A stretch of DNA of 64,000 nt from Rhizophagus irregularis (taxonomy: Eukaryota; Glomeromycota; Glomeromycetes; Glomerales; Glomeraceae), in the NCBI RefSeq assembly GCF_026210795.1, contig NC_089453.1:1552501-1616500 (forward strand). Direction: 5' to 3'. This document shows positions 3,475-59,859 of this stretch, in pieces. How positions within the stretch are numbered: the first letter of the stretch is position 1; every line of letters starts with the position of its first letter. The translations under genes and the position numbers were made by a program. Below the pieces are notes generated by a model. It made no database searches. It was not told the DNA's origin and worked only from the letters and a program-made list of their open reading frames with translations.

Positions 3475-4690
3475 CTGCGCACGCAGTTGTTCAGGTTTTT
3501 ACCGACTGCGTTCAGCTTATTGACAAATGGTCACAATTTGTGGATTTGCCGTTCAATCCTAGTCTCCTAGAATACTTAAAGAAACCAACCATTTAATATG
3601 GGTATCCCTTCGTGCTTTAAATGTTTCGAAGAATTTATCTATCTCTTTTACCAAGGTCCCTGCACACGCCGATGACCTCCATAATAATCAAGTGGATATG
3701 CTCGCCAAGTCTGCACGATATAACGACTTACCAGCGGGACCTCCAACTTTCTTTCTTACAGCTCCTTGTGCCTTAAATTTTAACGCATTACTTTTGGATG
3801 TTAACTTACGATATATCTACAAAGAAATTTTCAAAGCTCGTCAACTTGCTTTTCTCTGTACCTTGACGCGTTTCTCTGACCTTGGTCCCGTCTCTTTATT
3901 CGATTGGGCTTTAACTTGGTCTTGCCTTTCTATGGATCATGGTCCTTTCGCTCGTTCGAATGGTCGTGCTAGCTTTCTTGCCTTCCGCATCAAATTATTG
4001 CTGAATATGCTACCAACCATGACCACACTACAACAACGCCTTCCATCGGTTTATCCTCCTGAATGGCTTTGTCTCTTGTGTGACTCCTTGCCTGAAGACT
4101 TGCCGCATTTGTGGTCTTGTACCTGCACTCTCGCGGATTATACGCCTCGCTCGACCCACCGCAATTTATTACTAGCTCTTCGTTCCTCCCTTTTAGAAGG
4201 GTTCACGCTTGCTGCGCTGGACAACACGCTTTCACCTGCCTTCAGTTCTCCTCGGCTTTTATGGCTCTGGATTGTTGGTCTTCTTCGCATTGGCTCACGC
4301 GAGGCCTTATACCTACCGAGTTGGTAGCTCTTTTGAGACCCTACCTTTCTCATGCAAAAATATTGTGTTTTTGCTCCTGCTCTGAAAGACTTCCATTTTA
4401 AATTGTATGTGGAAATTTGGATTTGTCGCTCAGTTTTATTTCAAGTCTGGGAACGTTCCCGGGGTATCACCTGCTCAATGAAATAATATGGTTCCTCTCG
4501 TAACTCCTCCTCTCCGTCTCCTCGTACTTCAATTACTACTCTCTCCTCTTCTATGGCGTCAGTCCTTCAGGATCCTTGGATTTTTTGGATTTCCTCTTCT
4601 ATAGTCCAAGGTGGACATTGGTTCTCACACTTGGATTTTCTGCGCCGCTTAACAGTTCAGCCTCTTCGTCTTAGGATTTCTCTCTGGTGA
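3475..4690 (+). pseudogene. Retroelement RNase H / C-terminal region, frameshifted
   Basis: Remains of the C-terminal part of a non-LTR retrotransposon polyprotein. Near the start, VFTDCVQLIDKW resembles the middle of an RNase H fold; further on, AHADDLHNNQVDMLAKSA matches the RNase H C-terminal signature (H..N..AD.LAK). A Cys-containing region follows (WLCLLCDSLPEDLPHLWSC), as in post-RT zinc-binding segments, then a Trp-rich tail. The frame changes near 3590 and near 4310-4380, and there is an in-frame stop near 4484, so no intact protein can be made. Codon usage is more GC-rich than in the host genes, typical of these elements. The upstream reverse transcriptase is absent because of 5' truncation. 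Confidence 0.8.
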
Positions 4691-7385: not shown

Positions 7386-8395
7386 TTTTAACGCTCACCC
7401 CAGGTGAAAATCACCTGGTCATATGATTTTTAAAATTTATACATGTAAAGTAAAACTGATTTTTTAATAAATTATAAATTAAAAATTTTCCTCTTTACTT
7501 TATTAAAGCATTATAAAATTTGATAGCTAAAATGTTGACCAAAATGGTGAAATTATATTCTTAGCAAGAAAAATTCGAAAATTAGTACCATTATGAAAAA
7601 TACGGATATCTTTGCAAACATAATACCTACACTCATGAAAATTAAAATGTAAGTGTTTTCCACCTTTCTGAACAATTTTCACTTAATAAAGAAAGTCAAT
7701 TTCATTTGAGTAAAGTAGTGAAATTACGCTCTGAATTTAATAAACAAAAAATGAAAAATTCGAAAATTATTGCCATTACGTAAACGTGAATATCTCTACA
7801 AGTATTATACCTACGCTCATGAAATTTAAGATATAAGTAGTTTCGACATCGGTGAACAACATTTACATAATAAAGGAAGTCGATTTCATTTGAATAAAGT
7901 AGTGAAATTACGCTCTGAAATTAACAAACGGAAAATGAAAAATTCAAAAATTATTGTTATTATAAAAAACATGAATATTTCCACAAGTATTATACCTACG
8001 CTTATGATATTCAAGATATAAGTAGTTTCGACATAGTTGAACAACTTTCACTTAATAAAGAAAGTTGATTTCATTTGACTAAAGTGACGAAATTACGCTC
8101 TGAAGTTAGAAAATATAATACGAAAGAAATTTAGAAATAAATATACTATGAATTGTATAAAATACCTGTATCTTCACAAGATATAAGTAACAAAACTGAG
8201 TCAAAGTGTTTAATATGTGTTAATAACAAAGCTTTTAAAATTTTTTTTAGAAAAGAAATTTTTTTTTTTATAATCATAACGTGATAAATAAATAAATAAA
8301 TAATTGTGAAATGTAACACAAATCAAGGGGGTGAATTTCACCTAAGGTGATTAAAATTAAAAAATAACCTAGGGTGAATTTTAAATTAATTCTTT
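7386..8395. repeat. Satellite-bearing inverted-repeat element (about 185-bp units)
   Basis: Three tandem units start near 7572, 7757 and 7941, so the period is about 185 bp. Each has an AATTC(G/A)AAAATTA start, TATACCTAC..TCATGA in the middle and GAAATTACGCTCTGAA near the end; a fourth, degraded unit reaches about 8160. The array is framed by related inverted motifs: CACCCCAGGTGAAAATCACC near 7398 and its counterpart, in reverse, near 8327-8360. This suggests a foldback or TIR element with an internal satellite. The exact ends and any TSD are not clear. No gene is seen in it. Confidence 0.55.
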
Positions 8396-10489: not shown

Positions 10490-11115
10490 ACTCCTCTTCA
10501 TCTTCCCATCACTTCTTTTCATCTCCATCGCTCCTTTTCGTCTCCCATCACTCCTTTTCGTCTCCCATCGCTTCTTTTCGTCTCCCATCACTTCTTTCAT
10601 CTCCCATCGCTTCTTTTCGTCTCCCATCACTTCTTTCATCTCCCATCACTTCTTTTCGTCTCCCATCATTCCTCTTCATCTTCTTTTTGTCTCCCATCAC
10701 TTCTTTTTATCTTTCATCACTCCACTTCGTCTCCCATCACTTCTTTTCGTCTCCCATCACTCCTTTTATCTTCCATCACTCCTCTTCGTCTCCCATCACT
10801 TCTTTTTGTCTCCCATCACTCCTTTTCATCTCTCATTATGTCCTATTTCTCCTTTTTGTTTTCTATCACTTCTCATTACTCTTTTTTACTCCCTTTCATC
10901 TTCTATTATTTTTCATCACGCCATTGTTATTTCATTTTTTTATTAGCATCTTTCTCCTTGATTATTGTAATTTACTTATCTTTTTTATTTATTGTTATTG
11001 TTTCTTTTATTTGTACACTTCAATAAAAATAAATATGGTGATTTTTTTCTTTAAAATCGTAAATGTGTGACTTAAACTTTAATATTTGCAAATAAAATTT
11101 CATTAAATAAATAAT
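10490..11115. repeat. CT-rich minisatellite plus conserved flank (dispersed family)
   Basis: From about 10490 to 10850 a 20-21 bp unit, roughly CTCCCATCACTTCTTTTCGT, repeats about 17 times and then decays to about 10990. The right flank (GGTGATTTTTTTCTTT, then AAAATCGTAAATGTGTGA) recurs in reverse at 57795-57840, next to a GGGAGACGAAAAGAAGTGAT array, so both loci belong to one dispersed repeat family. The Ser/His/Phe-rich ORF of 212 codons here is a translation of the minisatellite, not a supported gene. Confidence 0.75.
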
Positions 11116-11919: not shown

Positions 11920-13404
11920 CTACACGTTTATATTTTTAATTACTCCTTCAATTTTATATTGATCAAACAGTTTCATATATGAATTATTTTCTCGATAAAA
12001 ATAAGCCTCTTCTAAATACATGGAAACTGCAGGTCGTCCTTTCCACTTTTCAAGGAATGTTTCTAAAGTTTTTAAAGAAAACTTAATGTTATAAGGAATT
12101 CTAATTTCTCTTAGATTTGTTGATGCTTCCCTAATTAACACATTTGACAAGTAATCTCCAAATTCTAACTCTTTCCCTTCTTCATAATATGTTTCTTTAA
12201 AATTTAATGATCGTAATTTTTGACATTTTTTAAGTAATTTTTCAAATTCAATAAAGTGTTTCTCCAATGATGGAAATACAGGAATTGTTAAATATTCAAT
12301 TAAAAGACAATATTCACAAATTGTACGAATAAAATTAAGAGAGTCATTATAAAAATTATCATAATTCCAGTGAAAAGCATTAATCCTTAATTCTCTAAGA
12401 CATAAGCTATTTTTAACCATGCAATTAATTTGATAACAATCTATAAAATCTATCTTTAGGATCTCAAGGTTACGATAAGCCACCATTTCCAACTTTTTAT
12501 TGAAATCATCATTATTTAAAAATATAGGAGAATTAATTTCTAATGTTTCTAAATTATGAAGTTCTAGAAGTGCATATTGTAGAAATGTATAATTACATTC
12601 ATCGTAAATATCGTAATAATCCGAATAATCGTCATACTCATAACGAAGGTTTATATCAAAATGATTAAGAGTATTTGCGTGTTTTTTTAACATGTTAAAA
12701 ACTTCTGTATAAGGATCTTCCAATCGTTCCCAATAATCATCATCATCATCATCAAATTCATCTATCCATCTAAAATATTTTAAATTTTTTTGAAGTTCAA
12801 TTAATTTAGTAGTTCCATCATTGGCTTTTAAGTTTCTATTAATAATGATAATTCTTTGTATTTGTTGACAGATATGTGCTAACCTGTAAAAGTACCTAGA
12901 ATCAATCATTGTATCACATGTTAATTCACAAAGTGATTCAAGACGGACCCTTGCTTCCGGAAGGTATACTATCTCATAGGTATCACATATATTTAAATAC
13001 TTTATTTCTGGACATTTTTTTATCAAGAAACTGTAAATTTCCTCTTGTAAAAGAAATTGATTATATTCTGATGATGATCCAATAGAAATTATATCATCTA
13101 TAGTTTTTATATTGATACTCTTACAGAAAGACAAATAATCAAATACAAGTGATTGACCAGTAATTTTAACTCCTTTCTTTGTTAAGGACTCTTTAATATC
13201 ATTGGATAAATAAGAAGTAATAATGGAGTATAAAGAATTTTTTTTATAATAATTAATAGCATAGCGCCAAGGGTTCCTCCATAAAATTGGAACCACTGTT
13301 TCACACCAAATTCTATTAACCATTAGGCATGAAAAGAGGAATTTTGAATTATCTTGTAATTCCTCAAATATTAAGAAAAGAATATCTTTATTAAGTTTGG
13401 ACAT
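11920..13404 (-). CDS. F-box/leucine-rich protein, 494 aa (copy C)
   Basis: Complete and intronless, from MSKLNKDILFLIFEELQ to GVIKNINV. The F-box (about residues 3-47) is nearly identical to copy B. A leucine-rich region follows (NLETLEINS, NLEILKID, LRELRI, LIEYLTIP). Relative to B it has two expanded acidic/aromatic segments: an Asp run after RWIDEF just before YWERLEDPY, and a Tyr/Asp-rich insert after HFDINLRYEY. Both lie between conserved blocks, so they look like fast-changing loops. The likely role is recruiting an unknown substrate to an SCF complex. The start is set by the paralogs; an A-rich stretch on the coding strand lies directly upstream. Confidence 0.9.
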   Translation of the reverse strand: MSKLNKDILFLIFEELQDNSKFLFSCLMVNRIWCETVVPILWRNPWRYAINYYKKNSLYSIITSYLSNDIKESLTKKGVKITGQSLVFDYLSFCKSINIKTIDDIISIGSSSEYNQFLLQEEIYSFLIKKCPEIKYLNICDTYEIVYLPEARVRLESLCELTCDTMIDSRYFYRLAHICQQIQRIIIINRNLKANDGTTKLIELQKNLKYFRWIDEFDDDDDDYWERLEDPYTEVFNMLKKHANTLNHFDINLRYEYDDYSDYYDIYDECNYTFLQYALLELHNLETLEINSPIFLNNDDFNKKLEMVAYRNLEILKIDFIDCYQINCMVKNSLCLRELRINAFHWNYDNFYNDSLNFIRTICEYCLLIEYLTIPVFPSLEKHFIEFEKLLKKCQKLRSLNFKETYYEEGKELEFGDYLSNVLIREASTNLREIRIPYNIKFSLKTLETFLEKWKGRPAVSMYLEEAYFYRENNSYMKLFDQYKIEGVIKNINV

Positions 13405-14875
13405 TTTTTTTTCGAAAAAAAAAAATAAAAAATATTAATTAGGATAAAAATAATAGTACATATTATATAAAACTCCGATGTACGACACTTGTACGACAAT
13501 AATGCTGATCGATAATGTTTCACTGGAATATACATGGTAAATATAGTTTCTTTGGTACACAATCTATAATTGGTAGTTTAAATAGTGCATGTAGATCACA
13601 AAATTAATTGATGAAAAATAATTCGGTTGATATCTATTTTTTTTCATTAAATGTTAAAAGGTTCAAAAGTAATGCAAAAGCAAATGAAATCTATAAGAAT
13701 TTAAAGCGATTTTTATTTTCAGAATCAAATCAAATTTATAATTGTTCCCATTTTAGATTTACCAAAATTGAAGTCTTTTCCAAACAAATTTTATTTTTAT
13801 CATACATTAATATTTGATATAGTAATTAATGGCAATTGAATTCAAGTTTTGATGAATTTTCAGTAATTAACAATCTTTTAAAATCTTTGGAATGTTCGTT
13901 TTATGATGAAAATGAAAATAATTGTTGAACTAATTGACAAATAGGAATGCATGACCACATTATTGCTTAATATTTGTAAAATTATGCTTTAATAGTATTT
14001 CCTTGAATGATAGATATCTTAATCATGTAAGTGGATACATAGTACATACTGTATATTAGCCTTAATACATATTGTAGTAAATGGCTGAAAAACAAACTAT
14101 GACAATGAGACGGAATATTACTTTCTTTAATAGAAGATTTCAGGTACATAGAGATTATATATGTTAATGTAGCAATCTCAATTTATTTTTATAATTTACA
14201 TCACGCGATTGATTTCTCTAATTTTATTATTACTTTTCTAGAAAATTAAAGAATTAGAATAAATCAAATGTAAGTTGCTATAAAGGTAAGACTTTTTTCA
14301 AAAAAAAGATTTTTCCTTTGTCCTGGTATTGTACTAGGTGCAAATTTATAATATTAGAAATTAAGCTTAATTTTAAAGTCATATTAATTAAATAAACGAA
14401 TACAATTTTTCATCTTATTTCCTGAAATTATTATTATTATTATTATTGTTGTTATAAAGGAAGGAAGGAGTGGAAAGAGGTGATAGAAAAAAGTGAGATC
14501 AAATTAATTCATTGTAATTATTCTTAGATCAGACAAAGTTGTAAAAAGGATAATTTATGATTTTCAATTAATGATAAACAATCATTGAATTAAATTTTTA
14601 ATTTCTAATTTTCAGAAAATAAAAATAAGTTCTTTATATTTTAATTCAAACTTTTATCTGATTAGTATTTCGTTCTGATTATCCTCTGATCGCCACGATA
14701 TTTGATCACATCCGGATTCCGGAAATGAGTATATTCGCATAAATAATGGGAGGAAATAAATAGTTTATTCTGAGCCTAATAAGCTAATCATTTACTGTAT
14801 GCAAAATTGCGATGATATAATTGAAAATAAATTATCCTTTTTTACTAATGTAATACTTGTAGTAGTACTATTATA
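13405..14875. other. Intergenic, AT-rich, no supported gene
   Basis: The first 200 bp resemble the F-box 5' spacer (ACTCCGATGTACGACA, TGTTTCACTGGAATATAC). A 69-codon ORF at 13608-13817 (plus) is Phe/Asn/Lys-rich and matches nothing I recognise, and a short (TTA)n microsatellite lies near 14430. I see no other structure. Confidence 0.4.
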
Positions 14876-15650
14876 AGTATTTGTATTTACATAAAATTTA
14901 TTCTTTATCATTATTTATATAGCTTTTAATTGCATACTGTATAATGTAATTAATTTTGCTTTAGTTGTTCGTCTATGATGATGTACTTTTCAACTGCTTT
15001 TTCAAATAACAAATGAATGATGAATGATTAATTGTTCCGTATTCACTTAATTGTAATTTAGCAAATAAATTTTATCAATTACACGTTATCATAATTTAAT
15101 CTATAGTATTTTAGTTTACATTTTACACCAATAAAGAAATTTGGTTCAAATAGAAATTTAAACAAAACCAATTCTTCATTGATATTTAAGAGACTAAATT
15201 GTGAACAAGAATGATAGTTCAATTTGCGAATTAGAACTGGTTATTGTCCGGTAAAATACTCTGATTGACCAGTTTTTAACCGGTTTCTTTTTTCAAACCC
15301 CTGGGTTATCTTGGTCACTTGTGCCTTAAATGATATCTCCCACAGCGTAACCACCAAAAAACTTGGATAGGTATCCCATAAGATCATGATGCCAATAATT
15401 TTGCTCGTATCCGGCACGTTACGTCGTTACGTTGGGATGTACCATTAATTAATTAAATCAAAACATATGTAAAGTATCATATGAAAGTTTATTATTAGAG
15501 ATTTTTTGAAATGGTTTAATTTATGCCGGTTATGAATTGAATACCGGGTATTAGATTCATTCGGATTTTTTAACTTTATTTTATAAATTACATATCGGAA
15601 AGTAATTTATCGGCGCCACTTTGAAATAGAAGCCATTAAAATTTCCAGTA
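14876..15650. repeat. Segmental duplication, copy 1 (partner 38260-39433)
   Basis: Long stretches are shared with 38260-39433 in the same order and orientation. Examples are AGTATTTGTATTTACATAAA at the start, AAGAAATTTGGTTCAAATAG and CACTTGTGCCTTAAATGATA. Further shared marks are AGATTTTTTGAAATGGTTTA and GAATTGAATACCGGGTATT near the end. The partner carries roughly 520 extra bases at about 38726-39245. No ORF of note lies in either copy. Confidence 0.75.
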
Positions 15651-28010: not shown

Positions 28011-28680
28011 CAAGTCGTAGAAAGAGTCCTACAAAATAAAAAAAATGGTAGTACACCATTTTCTTAAAAGTGTTTTTGAAAGTTTTCCAAAAACTTACCC
28101 AGGTTCTAAATCTATAAGATCTTAAAGGAACCTTTAATACCCAACACCTTTGACTTAATAATCATGTATTATGGTCTATCTTCCGGGATTTAACAATCTT
28201 CAAATCCGTACAATATTTAAAAGTCAAAACTCATGATCATGATGACATGGTCCTTTGAATAACCGTGCGGATGGCTTAGCAAATCATCACCTTGATGATA
28301 CCGGATTCCTACAAAATAAGAAAAAAAAACTTTCTTAAAAAAAAAAAATTTTTTTTCTTAGAATCTCCGCCCATCTCAGAGCTAGATTTCTATAAAATGA
28401 AAAAAATATATGAATAAAAATAAGTTTTTGAAACGAAACCTTGCTTAGGACTTTAGTAGGGTTTGTGGTGCTGTCATAATGTCATTGCTAATCAAAATAA
28501 TCAATGGATCAAATTATTCGTTATTTTCATGCAACTATCAACCTTCGAAGCGGTGCCCTACAAACAAAAAATTAAATAAATAAAATAAAATGAGTCTAAA
28601 AAAAAACAAGAAAATGAAACGTTAGTGAACGTTTCGTAAAAGAAATAACAAAAAAACTACTCACTGATGAGATTCAAAAT
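28010..28680 (-). other. Array of exon-like blocks (array 3)
   Basis: On the minus strand, blocks begin after TTTTGTAG or TTTATAG at about 28311, 28410 and 28561. They end before GTAAG-like words, as at about 28097 (CCTGGGTAAGTTTT). The gaps are pyrimidine-rich on that strand. The gap near 28617 contains GAAACGTTAGTGAACGTTTC, a hairpin nearly the same as the one repeated in array 4 at 59 kb, so the two loci are related. No continuous coding frame with a recognisable domain was found. It may be part of a longer spliced transcript including the small ORF at 28699-28950. Confidence 0.4.
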
Positions 28681-30908: not shown

Positions 30909-32396
30909 TTACACGTTTATATATTTAATAACTTTTTCAATTTTATATTTATCGAACAGTTTCTTAAATGAATTATCTTTTCGATAAAAATAGGTGTTAT
31001 CAAAATATAAGGAAACTGCAGGTCGTCCTTTCCACTTTTCAAGGAATGTTTCTAAAGTTTTTAAAGAAAACTTAATGCCATAAGTAATTCTAATTTCTCT
31101 TAGATTTGCTGATGCTTCCCTAATTAACACATTTAACAAGTTATCTCCAAATTCTAACTCTTTCTCTGCTTCATAATATATTTCTTTAAAATTTAATGAT
31201 CGTAATTTTTGACATTTTTTAAGTAATTTTTCAAATTCAATAAAGTGTTCCTCCAATGATGGAAATGCAGGAATTGTTAAATATTCAATTAAAAGACAAT
31301 TTTTACAAATTGTACGAATAAAATTAAGAGAGTCATTATAAAAATTATCATCATTCCAGTGAAAATCATTAATCCTTAATTCTCTAAGACATAAGCTATT
31401 TTTAACCATGCAATTGATTTGATAAATATCTATAAAATCTATCTCTAGGATCTCAAGGTTACGATAAGCCACCATTTCCAACTTTTTATTGAAATCATCA
31501 TCATTTAAAAATATAGGAGAATCAATTTCTAATATTTTTAAATTATGAAGTTCTAGAAGTGCATATTGTAGAAATGTATAATTATATTCATTGTAAATAT
31601 CGTAAAAATCCAAATAGTAATCGTTATACTCATAACGAAGGTTTATATCAAAATGATTAAGAGTATTTGCATGTTTTTTTAATATGTTAAAAATTTCTGT
31701 GTATGGGTCTTCTAATACATCCCAATAATAAATGCCATCTTCTACTTCAATTTCATCTACCCATTTAAAATATTTTAAATTTTTTTGAAATTCGATTAAC
31801 TTAATAGTTCCCTGATTAGCTTTTAAGTTTTTGTTAATAATGATAATTCTTTGTATTTGTTGACAAATATGCGCTAATCTGTAAAAGTACCTAGAATCAA
31901 TCAATGTGTCACATGTTAATTCACAAAGTGATTCAAGACGAACCTTTGCTTCTGGAAGATATACTATCTCATAGGTACCACATATATTTAAGTACTTTAT
32001 TTCTGGAAATTTCTTTACCAATGAACTGTAAATTTCCTCTTGTAAAAGAAATCGATTATATTCTAATGATGATCCAATGGAAATTATATCATCTATAACT
32101 TTTATATTGATATTCTTACAGAAAGACAAATAATCAAATGCAAGTGATTGGCCTAAAATTAGAATCCCTCTCTTTGTTAATAATTCTTTAATATCATCGA
32201 ATAAATAAGAAGTAATAATGAAGTATAAAGAAATTTTTTTATAATTAATAGAATAGCGCCAAGGATTCCTCCATAAGATTGGAATCACGGTTTCACACCA
32301 TATTCTATTAACCATTAGGCATGAAAAGAGATATTTTGAATTATTTTGTAATTCCTCAATTATCAAGAAAAGTATATCTTTATTAAGTTTGGACAT
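30909..32396 (-). CDS. F-box/leucine-rich protein, 495 aa (copy D)
   Basis: Complete and intronless. The frame is open for ten more codons upstream (MFHFIYSKKN), but I place the start at 32394-32396, because all paralogs begin MSKLNKDILFLI there and the upstream codons are just the A-run leader read in frame. Here the A-run is broken by a T, which is what keeps it open. F-box about residues 3-47; leucine-rich repeats follow (NLKILEIDS, NLEILEIDF, LRELRI). The loop before LEDPY is different from all other copies (EIEVEDGIYYWDV). The C-terminus ends KVIKYINV. SCF adaptor role inferred from the F-box. Confidence 0.9.
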   Translation of the reverse strand: MSKLNKDILFLIIEELQNNSKYLFSCLMVNRIWCETVIPILWRNPWRYSINYKKISLYFIITSYLFDDIKELLTKRGILILGQSLAFDYLSFCKNINIKVIDDIISIGSSLEYNRFLLQEEIYSSLVKKFPEIKYLNICGTYEIVYLPEAKVRLESLCELTCDTLIDSRYFYRLAHICQQIQRIIIINKNLKANQGTIKLIEFQKNLKYFKWVDEIEVEDGIYYWDVLEDPYTEIFNILKKHANTLNHFDINLRYEYNDYYLDFYDIYNEYNYTFLQYALLELHNLKILEIDSPIFLNDDDFNKKLEMVAYRNLEILEIDFIDIYQINCMVKNSLCLRELRINDFHWNDDNFYNDSLNFIRTICKNCLLIEYLTIPAFPSLEEHFIEFEKLLKKCQKLRSLNFKEIYYEAEKELEFGDNLLNVLIREASANLREIRITYGIKFSLKTLETFLEKWKGRPAVSLYFDNTYFYRKDNSFKKLFDKYKIEKVIKYINV

Positions 32397-33527
32397 ATTT
32401 TTTTTTGAATAAATAAAATGAAACAAAATAAAAATAATAAATAATGAAGTACGTTTTATATAAAACTCCGATGTGTGACCATTAAATGTTTCATCGGAAT
32501 ATATATGGTAATAAATGTGGGGGTTAAAAAAACAGTTACACAGTTTAAAATTGGAAGTTTAAATAATGTAGATCAATCTGTAATTCGGTTGACGTTAATT
32601 GCTGATCCGCCAAGTAAAATGAAATCTATAATTGTGTAACATCTCGTTTAAAAAAAAACAAAAATATAAGGTTATTTTATATATACTGAATTTCTTCCTT
32701 TTTTGATTGGTCGACAATCTTATTAGTATTTTGATTGGCCCATTGGTTACATATTTTTCAGCCGGGATTGTAATACAAATTTGTTCACCAATTTGTATAA
32801 CATCGTAACCTTAAATAGAAAGTATATTTTTCAATATATGACGCAAGTTTATAATTCAAATATACTTCGGAAAAAAAAAATTCGTGGCAAATTAGCTCAA
32901 AAACCATTTAAGAGGTTATTAATTTGCAAAAATAATTTCCCAAAACGTATTAGTAGTTCATTGGTACGGAGACGGATCACGAATGATGAATTAATAATTA
33001 ATAATTACCGCAAAATCATTTTAATTGCTAAATTCTTTCATATTTTATTTGCTATTTAACATCATATTTAAATTAATTATTGTATCTAAAGAGATTATAA
33101 AGGATAATATAATAATTATGTTTAAGGTACTAGATGTTTTCTGAGGATGATGCAGAACTTTAAATTAATTTTATTATACTCGAAAAATTTCATTGTTGAA
33201 CAGTGGTTACTAAGAGAAATAGAAATTTAAAATTATAATAAAGAAAAAAAAAATTTTTTTAAAAAAAGAGATGTGAAACTAAAATAAATTAATTTCCGGG
33301 AATTATTGAGTAACAAAAAAAAAATGATGTAAGTTAGATATTAAAAATATATTATTTTATTAGATAAAAGTATTCATGTTTTACAAAAATTAGAAACTAA
33401 GATATCAATTATTTTAAATCTTTATTAACTGCTCTCGCTCATAATTCATAAATCATATAATTCATAAATCATAATACATAAGTATATTAATGTTTCTAAA
33501 TTCCATATCGTGGTTATCAAGAATAAT
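32397..33527. repeat. F-box-associated spacer, most complete copy
   Basis: About 1.1 kb between copies D and E, without transposon insertions, so it is the reference for the others. It has ACTCCGATGTGTGACCAT near 32463, GTAGATCAATCTGTAATTCG near 32567 and CAGCCGGGATTGTAATAC near 32759. The ACGGAGACGGATCACGAATG block follows near 32975, then the 3' region of copy E. A 92-codon plus-strand ORF (32781-33059) crosses these repeat blocks and is not conserved in the other copies, so I do not call it. Confidence 0.7.
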
Positions 33528-35012
33528 CTACACGTTTATTTTTTTAATTACTCCTTCAATTTTATATTTATCAAACAGTTTCATATATGAATTATTTTTT
33601 CGATAAAAAAAAGTCTCTTCTAAAAACATGGAAACTGCAGGTCGTCCTTTCCACTTTTCAAGGAATGTTTCTAAAGTTTTTAAAGAAAACTTAATGCCAT
33701 AAGAAATTCTAATTTCTTTTAGATTTGTTGATGCTTCCCTAATTAACACATTTAACAAGTTATCTCCAAATTCTAACTCTCCCCCTGCTTCATAATATGT
33801 TTCTTTAAAATTTAATGATTGTAATTTTTGACATTTTTTAAGTAATTTTTCAAATTCAATAAAGTGTTTCTCCAATGATGGAAATGCAGGAATTGTTAAA
33901 TATTCAATTAAAAGACAATATTCGCAAATTGTACGAATAAAATTAAGAGAGTCATTATAAAAATTATCATAATTCCAGTGAAAATCATTAATCCTTAATT
34001 CTCTAAGACATAAGCTATTTTTAACCATGCAATTAATTTGATAACAATCTATAAAATCTATCTCTAGGATCTCAAGGTTACGATAAGCCACCATTTCCAA
34101 CTTTTTATTGAAATCATCATTATTTAAAAATATAGGAGAATCAATTTCTAATATTTTTAAATTATGAATTTCTAGAAGTGAATTTTGTAGAAATGTATAA
34201 TTAAATTCATTGTAAATATCGTAAAAATCCGAATGATCGTAATAATTATAACGAAGGTTTATATTAAAATGATTAAGAGTATTTGCATGTTTTTTTAATA
34301 TGCTAAAAATTTCTGTATAAGGATCTTCCAATCGTTCCCAATAATAATAATAATCATCATCAAACTCATCTACCCATTTAAAATATTTTAAATTTTTTTG
34401 AAATTCGATTAACTTAATAGTTCCCTGATTAACTTTTACTAAGTTTTTATTAATAACGATTATTCTTTGCATTTGTTGACAAATATTCGCTAATCTGTAA
34501 AAGTACCTAGAATCAATCAATGTATCACATGTTAATTCACAAAGTGATTCAAGACGAACCTTTGCTTCTGGATGATATACTATCTCATAGGTACCACATA
34601 TATTTAAGTACTTTATTTCTGGACATTTCTTTACCAATAAACTGTAAATTTCCTCTTGTAAAAGAAATCGATTATATTCTAATGATGATCCAATGGAAAT
34701 TATATCATCTATAACTTTTATATTGATATTCTTACAGAAAGACAAATAATCAAATGCAAGTGATTGGCCTAAAATTAGAATCCCTCTCTTTGTTAATAAT
34801 TCTTTAATATCATCGAATAAATAAGAAGTAATAATGGAGTATAAGGAAATTTTTTTATAATTAATAGAATAGCGCCAAGGATTCCTCCATAAGATTGGAA
34901 TCACGGTTTCACACCATATTCTATTAACCATTAGGCATGAAAAGAGGAATTTTGAATTATTTTGTAATTCCTCAAATATCAAGAAAAGTATATCTTTATT
35001 AAGTTTGGACAT
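33528..35012 (-). CDS. F-box/leucine-rich protein, 494 aa (copy E)
   Basis: Complete and intronless, MSKLNKDILFLIFEELQNN to VIKKINV. It is closest to copy D over the first third (shared FDDIKELLTKRGILILGQSL) but resembles copy C in the loop YWERLEDPY and in the C-terminal EETFFYRKNNSYMKLF, which suggests mosaic ancestry or gene conversion. The loop before YWERLEDPY has a run of Tyr after Asp (FDDDYYYY), a codon-repeat difference from C. F-box at about 3-47, leucine-rich region after. It probably recruits an unknown target to SCF. Confidence 0.9.
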   Translation of the reverse strand: MSKLNKDILFLIFEELQNNSKFLFSCLMVNRIWCETVIPILWRNPWRYSINYKKISLYSIITSYLFDDIKELLTKRGILILGQSLAFDYLSFCKNINIKVIDDIISIGSSLEYNRFLLQEEIYSLLVKKCPEIKYLNICGTYEIVYHPEAKVRLESLCELTCDTLIDSRYFYRLANICQQMQRIIVINKNLVKVNQGTIKLIEFQKNLKYFKWVDEFDDDYYYYWERLEDPYTEIFSILKKHANTLNHFNINLRYNYYDHSDFYDIYNEFNYTFLQNSLLEIHNLKILEIDSPIFLNNDDFNKKLEMVAYRNLEILEIDFIDCYQINCMVKNSLCLRELRINDFHWNYDNFYNDSLNFIRTICEYCLLIEYLTIPAFPSLEKHFIEFEKLLKKCQKLQSLNFKETYYEAGGELEFGDNLLNVLIREASTNLKEIRISYGIKFSLKTLETFLEKWKGRPAVSMFLEETFFYRKNNSYMKLFDKYKIEGVIKKINV

Positions 35013-35401
35013 TTTTTTTTTTGAATAAATAAAATGAAAATAATAAATAATGAAGTACGTTTTATATAAAACTCCGATGTGTGACCATTAAATGTTTCAT
35101 CGGAATATATATGGTAATAAATGTGGTTATACAGTTTAAAATTGGAAGTTTAAATAATGTAGATCAATCAGTAATTCGGTGACGTTAATTACTGATCCGC
35201 CTATAATTGGAAGTAAAAGTGAAGATCAAATGAAAGCTATATCTGTGTTACTATTTTATAATTGTGTAACATTTATCTCGTTTATATAATCAAGTACAAA
35301 ATACAAGGTTATTTTATATTATTAATATTCTGATTGACCCATTCAGTTGGTTACATTGTTTTTTAGCAGGGATCGTAATACAAATTTGTTCACCAATATC
35401 G
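35013..35401. repeat. F-box-associated spacer upstream of copy E
   Basis: Matches 32430-32790, with small deletions. It ends in TTTGTTCACCAATATCG, where the retroelement at 35402 interrupts it. The A-run leader and presumed core promoter of copy E lie at its left end. No ORF. Confidence 0.65.
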
Positions 35402-38259: not shown

Positions 38260-39433
38260 AGTATTTGTATTTACATAAATTTTATTCTTTATCATTATTT
38301 ATATGATAGCTTTTAATTGTCAACTGCTTTTCAAATAAAAATGAATGATGAATGATATTATTTGTTCCGTATTTACTTAATGGTAATTTAACAGATAAAT
38401 TTTATCAATTACACGTTACCATAATTTAACCTATAGTGTTTTAGTTTACTGTACATTTGTTACATCAATAAAGAAATTTGGTTCAAATAGAAATTTAAGC
38501 AAAACTGATATTTTAGAGACTCAATATAGGAACAAATTATGAACAAAAGTAATAGTTCAATTTGCGAATTATAAATGGTTATTTGTCCGGTAAAATACTC
38601 TGATTAACCAGTTTTTAACCGGTTGCTTTTTCCAACCCCTGGTTTGTTATCATGGTCACTTGTGCCTTAAATGATAGCGTAACCACCAAAAAAATTTGGG
38701 TAAGTATCCCATAAGATTATGATGTTATCGTCCAATTAGCCCAATTAGATTTACAAGCATTACCCCAAAAAAGTACTGGTCACATGACCATATAAAAATC
38801 ATCACATCTGTTACACCCTTAGTGTTTTTATTATTTATAGTTAGAGGTTATAACAGTTATTAGAAATTTATTAGAAATTGAACATTTGCGAATATTTCAT
38901 AGGCTAGCAAACTTGGTTCTAACCCATACAATCTCAATCTTTATTGAAGATGTAAAAAATTGACTATATATATTAATTTCTAAGGATATCCAGACTCTCA
39001 GTCGTCCATAGCCCTATGAAAAAGGAATTCCAAAATTTATCCTAATTGTAAAGCTCTCATTAGAAGCGTCAAATCTTTTAACCTCTTGTAACTAAAAATT
39101 GCACATGATTCTATTTTTATGATTTGTTGGCAAACCTGCTTATTGGGGTCCACTTGAAAAAATATTATCTTCTTCTGATAATAGAATAATAAAAATTAAA
39201 AATTAAAAAATAGATGATGTATTTATATTACTCCTGCCATCAGTGATTGCAATAATTTTGCTCGTATCCAGTACATTACGTTGGGGTGTACCATTAATCA
39301 AAACATATGTAAAGTAATCATATAGAGTTTATTATTAGAGATTTTTTGAAATGGTTTAATTTATGCTAGTTATGAATTGAATACCGGGTATTTTAGATTC
39401 ATTTGGATTTTTAGAAATAGATACCATTAAAAT
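38260..39433. repeat. Segmental duplication, copy 2 (partner 14876-15650)
   Basis: The left part (38260-38725) and the right part (about 39246-39433) match copy 1 in order. Between them is an extra segment of about 520 bp starting TTATCGTCCAATTAGCCC and ending near CTGCCATCAGTGATTG, absent from copy 1. It ends A-rich (AAAAATTAAAAATTAAAAAA), so it may be a short retroposed insert, but no target duplication is clear. After 39433 the two copies diverge; copy 1 goes on into array 2, which is absent here. Confidence 0.7.
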
Positions 39434-42536: not shown

Positions 42537-44018
42537 CTAAACGTTTATATCTTTAATAACTTTTTCAATTTTATATTTATCAAACAGTTTCATATATGAA
42601 TTATCTTTTTGATAAAAATAAGTGTTATTAAAATATAAGGAAACTGCAGGTCGTCCTTTCCACTTTTCAAGGAATGTTTCTAAAGTTTTTAAAGATAACA
42701 TAATGTCATAAGGAATTCTAATTTCTCTTAGATTTGCTGATGCTTCCCTAATTAACACATTTAACAAGTAATCTTCAAATTCTAAGTCTCTCCCTGCTTC
42801 ATAATATGCTTCTTTAAAATTTAATGATCGTAATTTTTGACATTTTTTAAGTAATTTTTCAAATTCAATAAAGTGATTCTCCGATGATGGAAATACAGGA
42901 ATTGTTAAATATTCAATTAAATAACAATTTTCACAAATTGTACGAATAAAATTAAGAGAGTCATTATAAAAATTATCATCATCATCATTCCAGTGAAATT
43001 CATTGATCCTTAATTCTCTAAGACATAAGCTATTTTTAACCATGCAATTAACTTGATAAATATCTATAAAATCTATCTTTAGGATCTCAAGGTTACGATA
43101 AGCCACCATTTCCAATTTTTTATTGAAGTTATCATTATTTAGAAATATAGGAGAATTAATTTCTAATATTTTTAAATTATGAAATTCTAGGAGTGCATAT
43201 TGTAAAAATGTATAATCAAAATCATCGTAAATATCGTAATAATCAGTAATGGAATACTCATAATGAAGGTTTATATCAAAATGATTAAGAGTATTTGTAT
43301 GTTTTTTTAATACGTTAAAAATTTCTGTATAAGGATCTTCCAATAATTCCCAATAATAATCTTCTTTAAATTCATCTACCCATTTAAAATATTTTAAATT
43401 TTTTTGAAATTCGATTAACTTAGTAGTTCCATGATTAACTTTTACTAAGTTTTTATTAATAATGATAATTCTTTGTATTTGTTGACAAATTTGCGCTAAT
43501 CTGTAAAAGTACCTAGTATCAATCAATGTGTCGCATGTTAATTCACAAAGTGATTCAAGACGAACCTTTGCTTCTGGAGGATATACTATCTCATAGGTAC
43601 CACATATATTTAAGTACTTTATCTCTGGACATTTCTTTATCAATAAACTGTAAATTTCCTCTTGTAAAAGAAATCGATTATATACTAATGATGATCCAAT
43701 GGAAATTATATCATCTATAACTTTTATATCGATATTTCTACAGAAAGACAAATAATCAAATGTAAGTGATTGGTTTAAAATTAGAATCCCTTTCTTTGTT
43801 AAGAATTCTTTAATATCATTGGATAAATAAGAAATAATAATGGAGTATAAAGAAATTTTTTTATAATTAATAGAATAGCGCCAAGGATTCCTCCATAAGA
43901 TTGGAATAACGGTTTCACACCATTTTCTATTAACCATTAGGCATGAAAAGAGGAATTTTGAATTATCTTGTAATTCTTCAAATAACAAAAAAAGAATATC
44001 TTTATTAAGTTTGGACAT
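42537..44018 (-). CDS. F-box/leucine-rich protein, 493 aa (copy F)
   Basis: Complete and intronless, MSKLNKDILFLLFEELQ to KVIKDINV. F-box at about residues 3-47 (VNRKWCETVIPILWRNPW), then the leucine-rich region (NLKILEINS, NLEILKIDF, LRELRI). The C-terminal half is nearest copy D (SLYFNNTYFYQKDNSYMKLF, KVIK), which agrees with the shared 3' spacer. The loop before LEDPY is short (FKEDYYWEL), and there is an extra Asp pair in EFHWNDDDDNFYND. The start follows an uninterrupted A-run. It is separated from copy E by about 7.5 kb of repeats. Predicted SCF adaptor, target unknown. Confidence 0.9.
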   Translation of the reverse strand: MSKLNKDILFLLFEELQDNSKFLFSCLMVNRKWCETVIPILWRNPWRYSINYKKISLYSIIISYLSNDIKEFLTKKGILILNQSLTFDYLSFCRNIDIKVIDDIISIGSSLVYNRFLLQEEIYSLLIKKCPEIKYLNICGTYEIVYPPEAKVRLESLCELTCDTLIDTRYFYRLAQICQQIQRIIIINKNLVKVNHGTTKLIEFQKNLKYFKWVDEFKEDYYWELLEDPYTEIFNVLKKHTNTLNHFDINLHYEYSITDYYDIYDDFDYTFLQYALLEFHNLKILEINSPIFLNNDNFNKKLEMVAYRNLEILKIDFIDIYQVNCMVKNSLCLRELRINEFHWNDDDDNFYNDSLNFIRTICENCYLIEYLTIPVFPSSENHFIEFEKLLKKCQKLRSLNFKEAYYEAGRDLEFEDYLLNVLIREASANLREIRIPYDIMLSLKTLETFLEKWKGRPAVSLYFNNTYFYQKDNSYMKLFDKYKIEKVIKDINV

Positions 44019-44300
44019 TTTTTTTTTTTTGAATAAACAAAAAAAATAATAATAATGATACTAATAAATAATGAAGTACATTTTATATAAAACTCCGATG
44101 TATGACCATTAAATGTTTCATCGGAATATATATGGTAAATGTAGAGTCAATAGAAAACCGGTTACAGGTTAAAATTAGTAATTTTAAATAATGTAGATCA
44201 CTATGGCTGATTTACCTATAATGGGAAGCAATAGTGAAGATCTACTGGGTAATGTTTGTTCACGCCAATAATAATGTCTGGCTATTTATAGTGATCAATC
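44019..44300. repeat. F-box-associated spacer upstream of copy F, truncated
   Basis: Matches the start of the other spacers (ATGAAGTACATTTTATATAA, ACTCCGATGTATGACCAT, TGTTTCATCGGAATATAT) but loses similarity by about 44210-44250. The rest of the module is absent; the sequence then leads to the acyltransferase pseudogene. Confidence 0.6.
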
Positions 44301-57537: not shown

Positions 57538-58800
57538 AATATAATTGGGAATTGCTAAACGTCGCCTGGGCGATTGTTACCTGGTTTTTTTTTAAATATG
57601 TCACATGATGTACAATATATAAAGAGAGAATTTATTAATCGGCTGACGGCTGATTTTTTCAAACTTAGCTAATTTTTGATTGGCTAAACTTAAAAATTTT
57701 ATCGCAAAGATCTATTTTAAAAAAAATATTTTATTGCAAGCATATTTATCCAAAATAATCTTATCTAATAAAATTTTATTTGTAAATATTAAAATTTAAA
57801 TCACACATTTACGATTTTAAAGAAAAAAATCACTGTATTTATTTTTAATGAAGTGATACAAATAAAAGAAAAGATAAGTAAATGCTAATAAAAAATGAAA
57901 TATCAATGGAGTAATGAGAAGTAATAGAAGATGAAAGGGAGTAAAAGAGAGTAATGAGAAGTGATAGGAAGAAAAAAGGAGAAATAGGACATGATGGAAG
58001 ATGAAGAGGAGTAATAGGAAGATGAAGAGGAGTGATGGGAGACGAAAAGAAGTGATGGGAAGATGAAGAGGAATAATGAGAAGGTGAAGAGGAGTGATGG
58101 GAGACAAAAAGGAGCGATGGGAGACAAAAAGAAGTGATGGGAAGACGAAGAGGAGAGAAAAAGAAATAATGGAAAATGAAAAGATGTAATAGAAAATAAT
58201 GGGAGACGAAAAGAATGGAATAATAAGAAGTAATAGGAGGTGAAAATGATGAGAGATAAAAAATAAAAAAATGATCATGATAGGATGATGGGTAGCAAAA
58301 GATAATGATAGGAAACCAAGTAAAAAATAAACCATAAAGTAAAAAAAATATAGTTAGTAAGAAACGAATTATAAGATAGACAAAATAAATAAAATAAATA
58401 AAAAATAAATAACATACCTTTATTAATTGTAGAACCGAAAGAACTAAAGGTCTAAAAAAACTGAAATAAAATTAGTGAAAAACGAAATATGAAACAGAAA
58501 CGAAATAAAAAAATAAAAATAAGAAACGAAATGTAAAGTGAAAAACAACTGAACCTTAATTGCAGAACCGGAAGGGCTAAAAGACCTAAAAATAATGAAA
58601 TAGAGTTAGTAAGAAACAAAGTGTAAAGATATAAGTTAGAAATAAAAATAAAAAGGAAAAAAGAAAAATACCTCAAGACCGAAATAACTGAGAAAATGAA
58701 CCTTGAACCTATAATGAAAACGAGATTCGATAAACAAATAAATATGACAAATCTGCTGCATGATCGAAGACCCAGGCGATGTTTACCAATTCCAATATAA
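57538..58800. mobile_element. 1.26-kb TIR element carrying a GA-rich minisatellite
   Basis: The left end (ATAATTGGGAATTGCTAAAC, then GTCGCCTGGG) and the right end in reverse (ATATTGGAATTGGTAAACAT, then CGCCTGGG) are inverted repeats over about 28 bp with a few differences. The core holds the GA-rich array and its flank, shared with 10490-11115, then exon-like blocks that lead into array 4. No transposase. The TSD is unclear in AT-rich flanks. Confidence 0.55.
57720..58270. repeat. GA-rich minisatellite, reverse counterpart of 10490-11115
   Basis: Units such as GGGAGACGAAAAGAAGTGAT and GATGAAGAGGAGTGATGGGA repeat about 15 times. The left flank TCACACATTTACGATTTTAA matches, inverted, the right flank of the CT array at 11050. 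The two loci have different TIRs but the same core, so this is a module shared by two element families. The minus-strand Ser/Phe/His ORFs (57817-58335) are translations of the repeat. Confidence 0.75.
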
Positions 58801-59720
58801 TTTATATCATTCTAATATTACTAGGAAACGGAAACTGTTGTACGTCCGGAGCGAAAAATTTTGTACAAAAATTTTTATTTATTTATTTTTTTTTTAAACA
58901 CTATCTTTTGTACTTTTCAAGATTAGCCAAACAAGATAAAAAATGATTAAGTTTAAATTATGTTCCTACGAAAAAAATAAAGTTAAAACATTAGGAACAT
59001 CTCTTTAAAGTTGAAAATTCAAAAAAAAACATTTATTTAAAAAACCCTATCGAAAAAGTATCAAACAAATAAAAAATCTGCTCTTCCCAATTTACCTTTA
59101 AAAGTCCAGTGTGTACAAAATCCTGGCGTCCCTAGAAAAAAAACAAGAAATGAAACGTTAGAAACGTTTCTTTAAACTCAAACAAATAAGAAAAGTCCCT
59201 CTTCCTTATTTACCTTTAAAAGTCCGGCATGTACAAAAATCCCAGCATCTCTAGAAAACAAAAATAAAAACGAAACGTTAGAAACGTTTCTTTAAAGTCA
59301 ACCAAATAAAAAAAACCCTTCTCTTCCCGATTTACCTTTAAAGTACGTATATACAAAAAATCTGGAAACCCTAGAAAAGAAATAGGAAATGAAACGTTAG
59401 AAACGTTTCTTTAAAGTCAAAACCCTCTTCTCTATTTTACCTTTAAAGTCTGGCGTGTACAAAAAACCCAGTGTCCCTAGAAAAAAAAATAAAAAATGAA
59501 ACGTTAGAAACGTTTCTTTAAAGTCAAACAAATAAAAAAACCCACCTCTTTCTAATTTACCTTTAAAGTCCGGTATGTACAAGAAATCCAAAAACCTTAG
59601 AAAAAAAAAATAAGAAATAATCCGTCAGAAATATCTGATATTTCTTTGAAACCAAATAAGAAAAAATATATACTCACTATTCCAGTCCGCCGAAACCTAA
59701 AAAAAGAATCAAAAAAAAAA
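58400..59720 (-). other. Array of exon-like blocks with hairpins, about 116-bp period (array 4)
   Basis: The clearest part is five tandem units on the minus strand. Their exon-like blocks are 59561-59595, 59441-59476, 59336-59370, 59214-59250 and 59096-59131 (35, 36, 35, 37 and 36 nt). Each is preceded by T-rich sequence ending CTAG or CTAAG and followed by GTAAAT or GTAAAA. Block starts are 105-122 bp apart. Each block ends GGACTTTAAAG or similar. The intervening intron-like part carries GAAACGTTAGAAACGTTTC, a perfect 8-bp-stem hairpin, in four of five units. Older, more degraded units reach down to about 58430, some with an ACCGAAAGAACTAAAGG or ACCGGAAGGGCTAAAAG motif. Unit lengths do not preserve one frame. 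Confidence 0.5.
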
Positions 59721-59859
59721 GATATCTAGTCTATAACTAAAAAAATACAATGTGTAACCGTAACGCTGCATAAATTAATTTTGAATTGCTGATCCGTATT
59801 CTTTATAGCTAAGACCCGCAAGTATTGTTGTATATCAATTCCGGTTAATGAAATTTTAA

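What the first reader, a model, noticed from the sequence alone, without database searches (positions are those of the whole stretch)
59090..59660. Second micro-exon-like array with a conserved hairpin in each intron-like gap
Five minus-strand units with exon-like blocks of 35-37 nt, CTAG|block|GTAAAT borders and a spacing of 105-122 bp. Four of the five gaps contain GAAACGTTAGAAACGTTTC (8-bp stem, 3-nt loop). The period is close to that of the unrelated-looking array at 15.6 kb. A hairpin retained within otherwise drifting gaps suggests a structural or processing role.
Basis: partly seen in the sequence, partly recalled or inferred. Interest (0 to 1): 0.7.

Follow-up and report, generated by a model that had tools for sequence, protein, structure and literature searches.

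The report
Tandem micro-exon cassettes with branch-point hairpins
A short stretch of what is probably a symbiotic-fungus genome carries one tiny exon-like block plus its intron-like gap copied five times in a row, and the hairpin that caught the eye is the part of the gap where splicing would branch; the array is real, but whether it is transcribed is unknown.

Summary
The array is real: five minus-strand blocks (59595-59096) of 35/36/35/37/36 nt, starts 106-120 nt apart, between splice-like borders. The 'conserved hairpin' is not a separate element; it spans a branch-point-like CTAAC, whose A lies 26-27 nt before the gap's last base in I1-I4. The diverged flanking gaps I0 and I5 keep CTGAC and CTAAT at 29 and 25 nt. 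My reading: a tandemly amplified spliceosomal micro-exon/intron cassette, perhaps part of an orphan gene. The hairpin block is invariant in I1-I4 (19 of 19 columns); exons E1-E4 are less so (21 of 36). New: the same 16 stem bases, with another loop, surround CTAAC in a second intron-like stretch at 28664-28596, beside sequence that does not match the array exons, which hints at a dispersed, introner-like intron. Whether the stem acts as RNA is open: no pair changes on both sides, I0 lacks this stem, unit folds are ordinary, and I5 keeps pairing only through four G-U pairs. Coding is possible but weakly supported. No transcript data and no host genome were available.

The parts
59561..59595 (-). 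E1, exon-like block, 35 nt (CTAAG | block | GTAAAT)
59441..59476 (-). E2, exon-like block, 36 nt (CTAG | block | GTAAAA)
59336..59370 (-). E3, exon-like block, 35 nt
59214..59250 (-). E4, exon-like block, 37 nt
59096..59131 (-). E5, exon-like block, 36 nt
59498..59516 (-). hairpin with CTAAC in intron-like gap I1 (59560-59477)
59391..59409 (-). hairpin with CTAAC in gap I2 (59440-59371)
59272..59290 (-). hairpin with CTAAC in gap I3 (59335-59251)
59152..59170 (-). hairpin with CTAAC in gap I4 (59213-59132)
59596..59677 (-). I0, diverged upstream gap: GTGAGT donor, CTGAC 29 nt from its end, CTAAG; a different predicted local hairpin
58966..59095 (-). I5, diverged downstream gap, 130 nt, CTAAT 25 nt from its end; stem kept only with four G-U pairs
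59678..59696 (-). E0, possible 19-nt exon upstream of the array (low confidence; breaks the open frame)
59749..59771 (-). possible first coding exon with ATG; TATAAAG lies at 59807-59801 (low confidence)
58850..58965 (-). possible last exon; in-frame stop right after E5; AT-rich stretch with AATAAA motifs inside (low confidence)
28596..28664 (-). J, second intron-like stretch with the same 8-bp stem, loop CACT, CTAAC 26 nt from its end, GTGAGT and TTTTAG borders

Best explanation
A tandemly amplified micro-exon plus intron cassette of spliceosomal (U2-type) design, probably the repeat part of a short lineage-specific gene on the minus strand. Each unit of about 119 nt carries a ~36-nt exon, a GTAAAT donor, a CTAAC branch point inside GAAACGTT-TCT-AACGTTTC, a T-rich tract and CTAG. 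Shown by sequence: the units, the order of the signals, and slower drift of the branch-point core than of exons and other gap parts. Inferred: that the array is transcribed and spliced; that the core is kept because it holds the branch point; that copies arose by unequal crossing-over or slippage of whole units, since exon and gap repeat together. If coding, each exon adds about 12 residues to a repeat protein. If the stem forms, it would pair the branch adenosine and could slow or regulate each intron; possible, not shown.
For: Donor, branch-point-like motif, T-rich tract and AG in order in I1-I4, with the branch A 26-27 nt from the gap end, and in the diverged I0 and I5 at 29 and 25 nt. Hairpin block invariant in 19 of 19 columns of I1-I4 against 21 of 36 exon columns in E1-E4 (Fisher p 0.0009, columns not independent); longest invariant run 25 of 121 columns, reached in 0 of 20,000 permutations. 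Chain of 4 micro-exons against at most 1 in 100 shuffles. Gap lengths 70-85 nt lie among those of 8 gene introns that I inferred from ORF breaks (74-87 nt). One frame is open through E1-E5.
Against: No transcript was available. The open frame is weak: 473 of 5,000 shuffled exon sets have at least one. 3 of 5 exon lengths are not multiples of three. The possible E0 breaks the frame. No protein family: one Pfam match below its cut-off. Invariance may reflect recent homogenisation. The gene introns used as controls mostly lack a strict CTRAY motif (2 of 8 have one by the rule), so a strong branch point is not the norm here.
Confidence: 0.6

Rival explanations
1. A plain minisatellite whose unit happens to hold splice-like and branch-point-like words; it is not spliced. 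The hairpin follows from a 9-nt direct repeat (AACGTTTCT AACGTTTC) of a near-palindromic word and does nothing.
For: Tandem repeats are common in the window (63 TRF rows, overlapping rows included). The repeat structure alone makes every copy carry every motif. Unit folds are ordinary (z +0.14 to -1.65). Upstream sequence is low-complexity and the exon lengths do not keep frame singly.
Against: Both diverged flanking gaps keep acceptor and branch-point-like motifs, and motif columns drift less than the rest. An HMM of I1-I4 finds an intron-like stretch elsewhere with matching order of signals.
Confidence: 0.25
2. Introner-like spread: the intron (not the exon) is a dispersed element, present as J at 28664-28596 and at the array, where it was later amplified together with a micro-exon.
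For: J aligns with I1 over about 60 nt within the gap, BLAST E 2.6e-7 for a 43-nt piece against the array, HMM E 8e-4, while sequence beside J does not match the array exons; J's GTGAGTA start resembles I0.
Against: One dispersed copy only. Much of the alignment is T-rich. Within the array exon and gap repeat together, so the array itself did not arise by intron insertion. A diverged gene copy would look alike.
Confidence: 0.2
3. The stem works as RNA: it masks the branch point and so regulates splicing of each unit (compatible with the best explanation).
For: 16 of 16 stem bases are the same at two loci while the loop differs. I5's four stem changes all keep a pair. Local 40-nt energy at the branch point is -7.4 to -9.7 in I0-I4 and J, against 0 to -1.3 in 12 scored control introns. 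A scan for branch points inside stems of 5 bp or more finds 5 sites, all 8 bp; 83 of 100 shuffles have none, 16 one, 1 two. Folded with 30-nt flanks, the branch A is paired with probability 0.81-0.97 in I0-I4 and J.
Against: No pair with changes on both sides. I0 has lost this stem; I5's is worth -1.2 kcal/mol and its branch A is paired at 0.38 with flanks. Folded without flanks, pairing of the branch A is no more likely than in shuffles with the branch point fixed (15-69% of shuffles reach it; I0 0.63, I3 0.46), and only I0, I1 and J have local energies below 5% of shuffles (I2-I4 8.5-13.5%, I5 67%). J was found through its hairpin.
Confidence: 0.25

Closest known systems
Tandem duplication of genomic segments with splice sites (PMC3443670, passages)
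   Same: Repeated copies of a segment bring repeated splice-like borders.
   Different: The reviewed mechanism makes new introns from exon duplication at AGGT; here whole exon-plus-gap units repeat and the exons are about 36 nt.
Micro-exon genes of schistosomes (PMC4350168, passages)
   Same: Runs of very small exons that could be mixed by alternative splicing.
   Different: Those exons are symmetrical, the products have signal peptides and the paper reports them as apparently restricted to platyhelminths; here 3 of 5 lengths break the frame and no homology is known.
Introner-like elements of fungi (PMC3443670, passages)
   Same: Similar intron sequence at two places; predicted secondary structure.
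   Different: Only two loci seen here, both diverged, and the array's exons repeat along with the gaps.
Structured introns of S. cerevisiae: zipper stems and downstream stems (PMC12350175, passages)
   Same: Short stems within introns near the splicing signals.
   Different: Those stems lie between donor and branch point or between branch point and acceptor; here the stem contains the branch point itself.
SP7-like effectors of Glomeromycotina (PMC11333574, passages)
   Same: Imperfect short peptide repeats in a probably related fungus.
   Different: Those repeats are hydrophilic, with a conserved intron before the first repeat; here the repeat is aromatic-rich and each repeat would be its own exon.

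Membership tests
U2-type spliceosomal intron | GT donor, branch point, pyrimidine tract and AG in order at normal distances | tested here: met
   I0-I5 and J, branch A 25-29 nt from the end
U2-type spliceosomal intron | removed from a transcript | not testable with these tools
   no RNA data
Schistosome-type micro-exon gene | small symmetrical exons | tested here: not met
   lengths 35, 36, 35, 37, 36; 3 of 5 not multiples of three
Schistosome-type micro-exon gene | signal peptide | not tested
   start of the gene is uncertain
Introner-like element | similar introns in unrelated genes | tested here: inconclusive
   one further stretch, J, with non-matching neighbours
Introner-like element | intron repeats without the exon | tested here: inconclusive
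   not so within the array (exons 76% alike); so for J
SP7-like effector | hydrophilic imperfect repeats in one exon after a conserved intron | tested here: not met
   translated repeat aromatic-rich, one exon per repeat; that the SP7 repeats share one exon is my inference from the passages
Conserved structural RNA hairpin | compensatory changes on both sides of pairs | tested here: inconclusive
   0 of 8 pairs changed on both sides; 4 changed on one side, all still paired; 3 distinct rows; I0 left out of this count
Rfam 15 families | match at or above gathering score | tested here: not met
   0 matches in the window

The most novel reading that the evidence does not exclude
The genome holds a dispersed family of introns in which a fixed 8-bp stem (GAAACGTT/AACGTTTC) carries the branch point in its loop and 3' arm. 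The stem is kept as a splicing switch, and at 59 kb one such intron has been amplified with a micro-exon into an array whose exons could be included one by one.
Probability: 0.14. Interest if true: 0.78.

Novelty: new variant of a known kind. Interest (0 to 1): 0.45.

Why it matters
If spliced, it is a compact natural series for asking how very small tandem exons are chosen and whether masking a branch point in a hairpin tunes splicing. If the stem-loop intron proves to be dispersed, it would bear on how new introns spread in early-diverging fungi. Both can be tested with one RNA-seq set and one genome search.

Tried and rejected
ARAGORN (0 genes), Rfam (0 matches) and Pfam with the joined peptide (one match, E 0.089, below its cut-off) gave no identity. 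An own-genome search was not possible. The 22-base exact word in genome contigs gave one hit, in a contig of 47.5-60.4% GC per kb labelled Verrucomicrobia, without a T-run and CTAG beside it: taken as chance. The same word in viral contigs: none. The looser stem pattern in viral contigs: 3 hits, none followed by a T-run and acceptor in the 151 nt that I read of each: taken as chance. CpG decay as the cause of exon drift: four exon dinucleotide positions show CG/TG/CA mixtures, and CG methylation is reported for R. irregularis (PMC8647823, passages), but the window's CpG ratio is 1.04, so I do not lean on it. Sequence homology of the two arrays: not supported. The first script placed the start of I0/E0 and of the last exon one base off; searches use corrected places.

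Full report
What is there. On the minus strand between 59700 and 58960 lies a tandem array with a period near 119 nt. Five blocks of 35-37 nt alternate with gaps of 84, 70, 85 and 82 nt; a diverged gap lies on either side (I0, 82 nt; I5, 130 nt). The window has 25.8% GC. Among its ORFs are a protein kinase, a BACK/TLDc protein, a weak ion-transport match below Pfam's cut-off and five similar ORFs of 504-549 aa. From recall such a set fits Glomeromycotina; I could not test that.

What the hairpin is. The 19-mer GAAACGTTTCTAACGTTTC (minus strand) contains CTAAC, a fungal branch-point consensus (recalled). Its A lies 26-27 nt before the end of I1-I4, ahead of a T-rich tract and CTAG. I0 has CTGAC at 29 nt and I5 CTAAT at 25 nt. 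In the 15.6-kb array the five gaps that I took carry CTAAT, CTGAT, CTAAT, CTAAT and TTAAT at 18-33 nt. Of 8 gene introns that I inferred from ORF breaks, 2 carry CTAAT, 5 only looser TTAAT/TTAAA words and 1 (kinase) none by the rule used. None of these 12 scored controls has a local fold below -1.3 kcal/mol. So a branch-point-like motif is shared with the other array, while the stem is special to this array and to one further place.

Conservation. In I1-I4 pairwise identity is 100% in the donor (3 gap cells aside) and the hairpin, 92% in the 12 nt before the hairpin, 71% between donor and core and 74% after the hairpin. Exons E1-E5 have 76% pairwise identity and the 35-nt core of I1-I4 96%; with I5 the core falls to 86%. 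The longest invariant run is 25 of 121 columns; 0 of 20,000 permutations reach that. Columns of related copies are not independent, and local homogenisation could imitate constraint.

Second locus. The stem occurs once more, at 28616-28635, in a 69-nt intron-like stretch (28664-28596) with GTGAGT, loop CACT, CTAAC, T-run and TAG. It aligns to I1 over about 60 nt, with BLAST E 2.6e-7 for a 43-nt piece, and reaches E 8e-4 against an HMM of I1-I4 (I5 scores alike, 9e-4, and I0 only 0.13). Its neighbours do not match the array exons. The loop differs while stem and CTAAC are the same. This fits a dispersed intron or a diverged gene copy. It was found through the hairpin, so its hairpin is no independent confirmation.

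Does the stem matter as RNA? For: the stem is the same at two loci; I5 has four changes and none breaks a pair; the branch-point-in-stem scan gives 5 sites against 0-2 in 100 shuffles; local energies are far below the 12 scored controls. Against: no two-sided change; I0 has lost this stem and is predicted to form another hairpin; I5's stem is worth -1.2 kcal/mol; six segments fold with z from +0.14 to -1.65 and the whole array with z -0.84; without flanks, pairing of the branch A is no more likely than in shuffles, and local energies beat 95% of shuffles only in I0, I1 and J. The window also holds four other 8-bp stems of the kind counted, against 0-2 in 10 shuffles, so short perfect stems are not rare in it. 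The stem can be read as a by-product of a 9-nt direct repeat. I put a structural role at about one in four.

Does it code? One of three frames is open through E1-E5 (59 codons), but 473 of 5,000 shuffled exon sets have at least one open frame. A possible ATG exon (59771-59749) joined directly to E1 keeps this frame and reads 69 residues to a stop just after E5; including E0 brings a stop at the end of E1. Leaving out E2 or E5 keeps the frame; leaving out E1, E3 or E4 changes it. A decayed or non-coding spliced locus remains about as likely.

How it most likely works. A small intron-bearing segment was amplified in tandem; each unit brings its own set of splice signals, so a transcript would be spliced micro-exon by micro-exon, and copies could be skipped or lost. 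Shown: anatomy and unequal conservation. Inferred: transcription, splicing, origin by unit duplication. Unknown: the product.

Literature. I saw passages of PMC11333574, PMC8786786 (also outline and abstract), PMC12350175, PMC8647823, PMC6142364, PMC4350168 and PMC3443670; a term search in PMC4457414 had no hit. The searches that bear on whether such arrays or introners are in print for these fungi were made; I saw no such report in the listings shown (up to 20 papers each; some searches matched far more). One search gave one paper, where the words occur in the reference list. The library holds open-licence papers only.

Noticed in passing
15427-15570 and 39276-39412: The stretch just upstream of the 15.6-kb array has an 88% identical copy at 39.3 kb, so that array may belong to a repeated family.
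   Followed up: partly
10490-10873 and 57992-58155: Two minisatellites of about 20 bp that look, by eye, like reverse complements of each other.
   Followed up: no
1268-2785, 11920-13434, 30909-32558, 33528-35087, 42537-44060 (all minus): Five similar ORFs of 504-549 aa sharing MSKLNKDILFL; F-box-like from recall, while Pfam gave the one scanned no match above its cut-off.
   Followed up: partly
7568-8108: A 185-bp tandem repeat, 2.9 copies, 82% matches.
   Followed up: no
59336-59595 (minus): The palindromic word CTTTAAAG stands at the end of exons E1-E3 and again just before the hairpin in I1-I3 (and in I5), so exon end and intron could pair or be relics of a small duplication.
   Followed up: no
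3563-4327 (+): ORF with a weak RNase H match below Pfam's cut-off (E 0.0036), perhaps a retroelement remnant.
   Followed up: no
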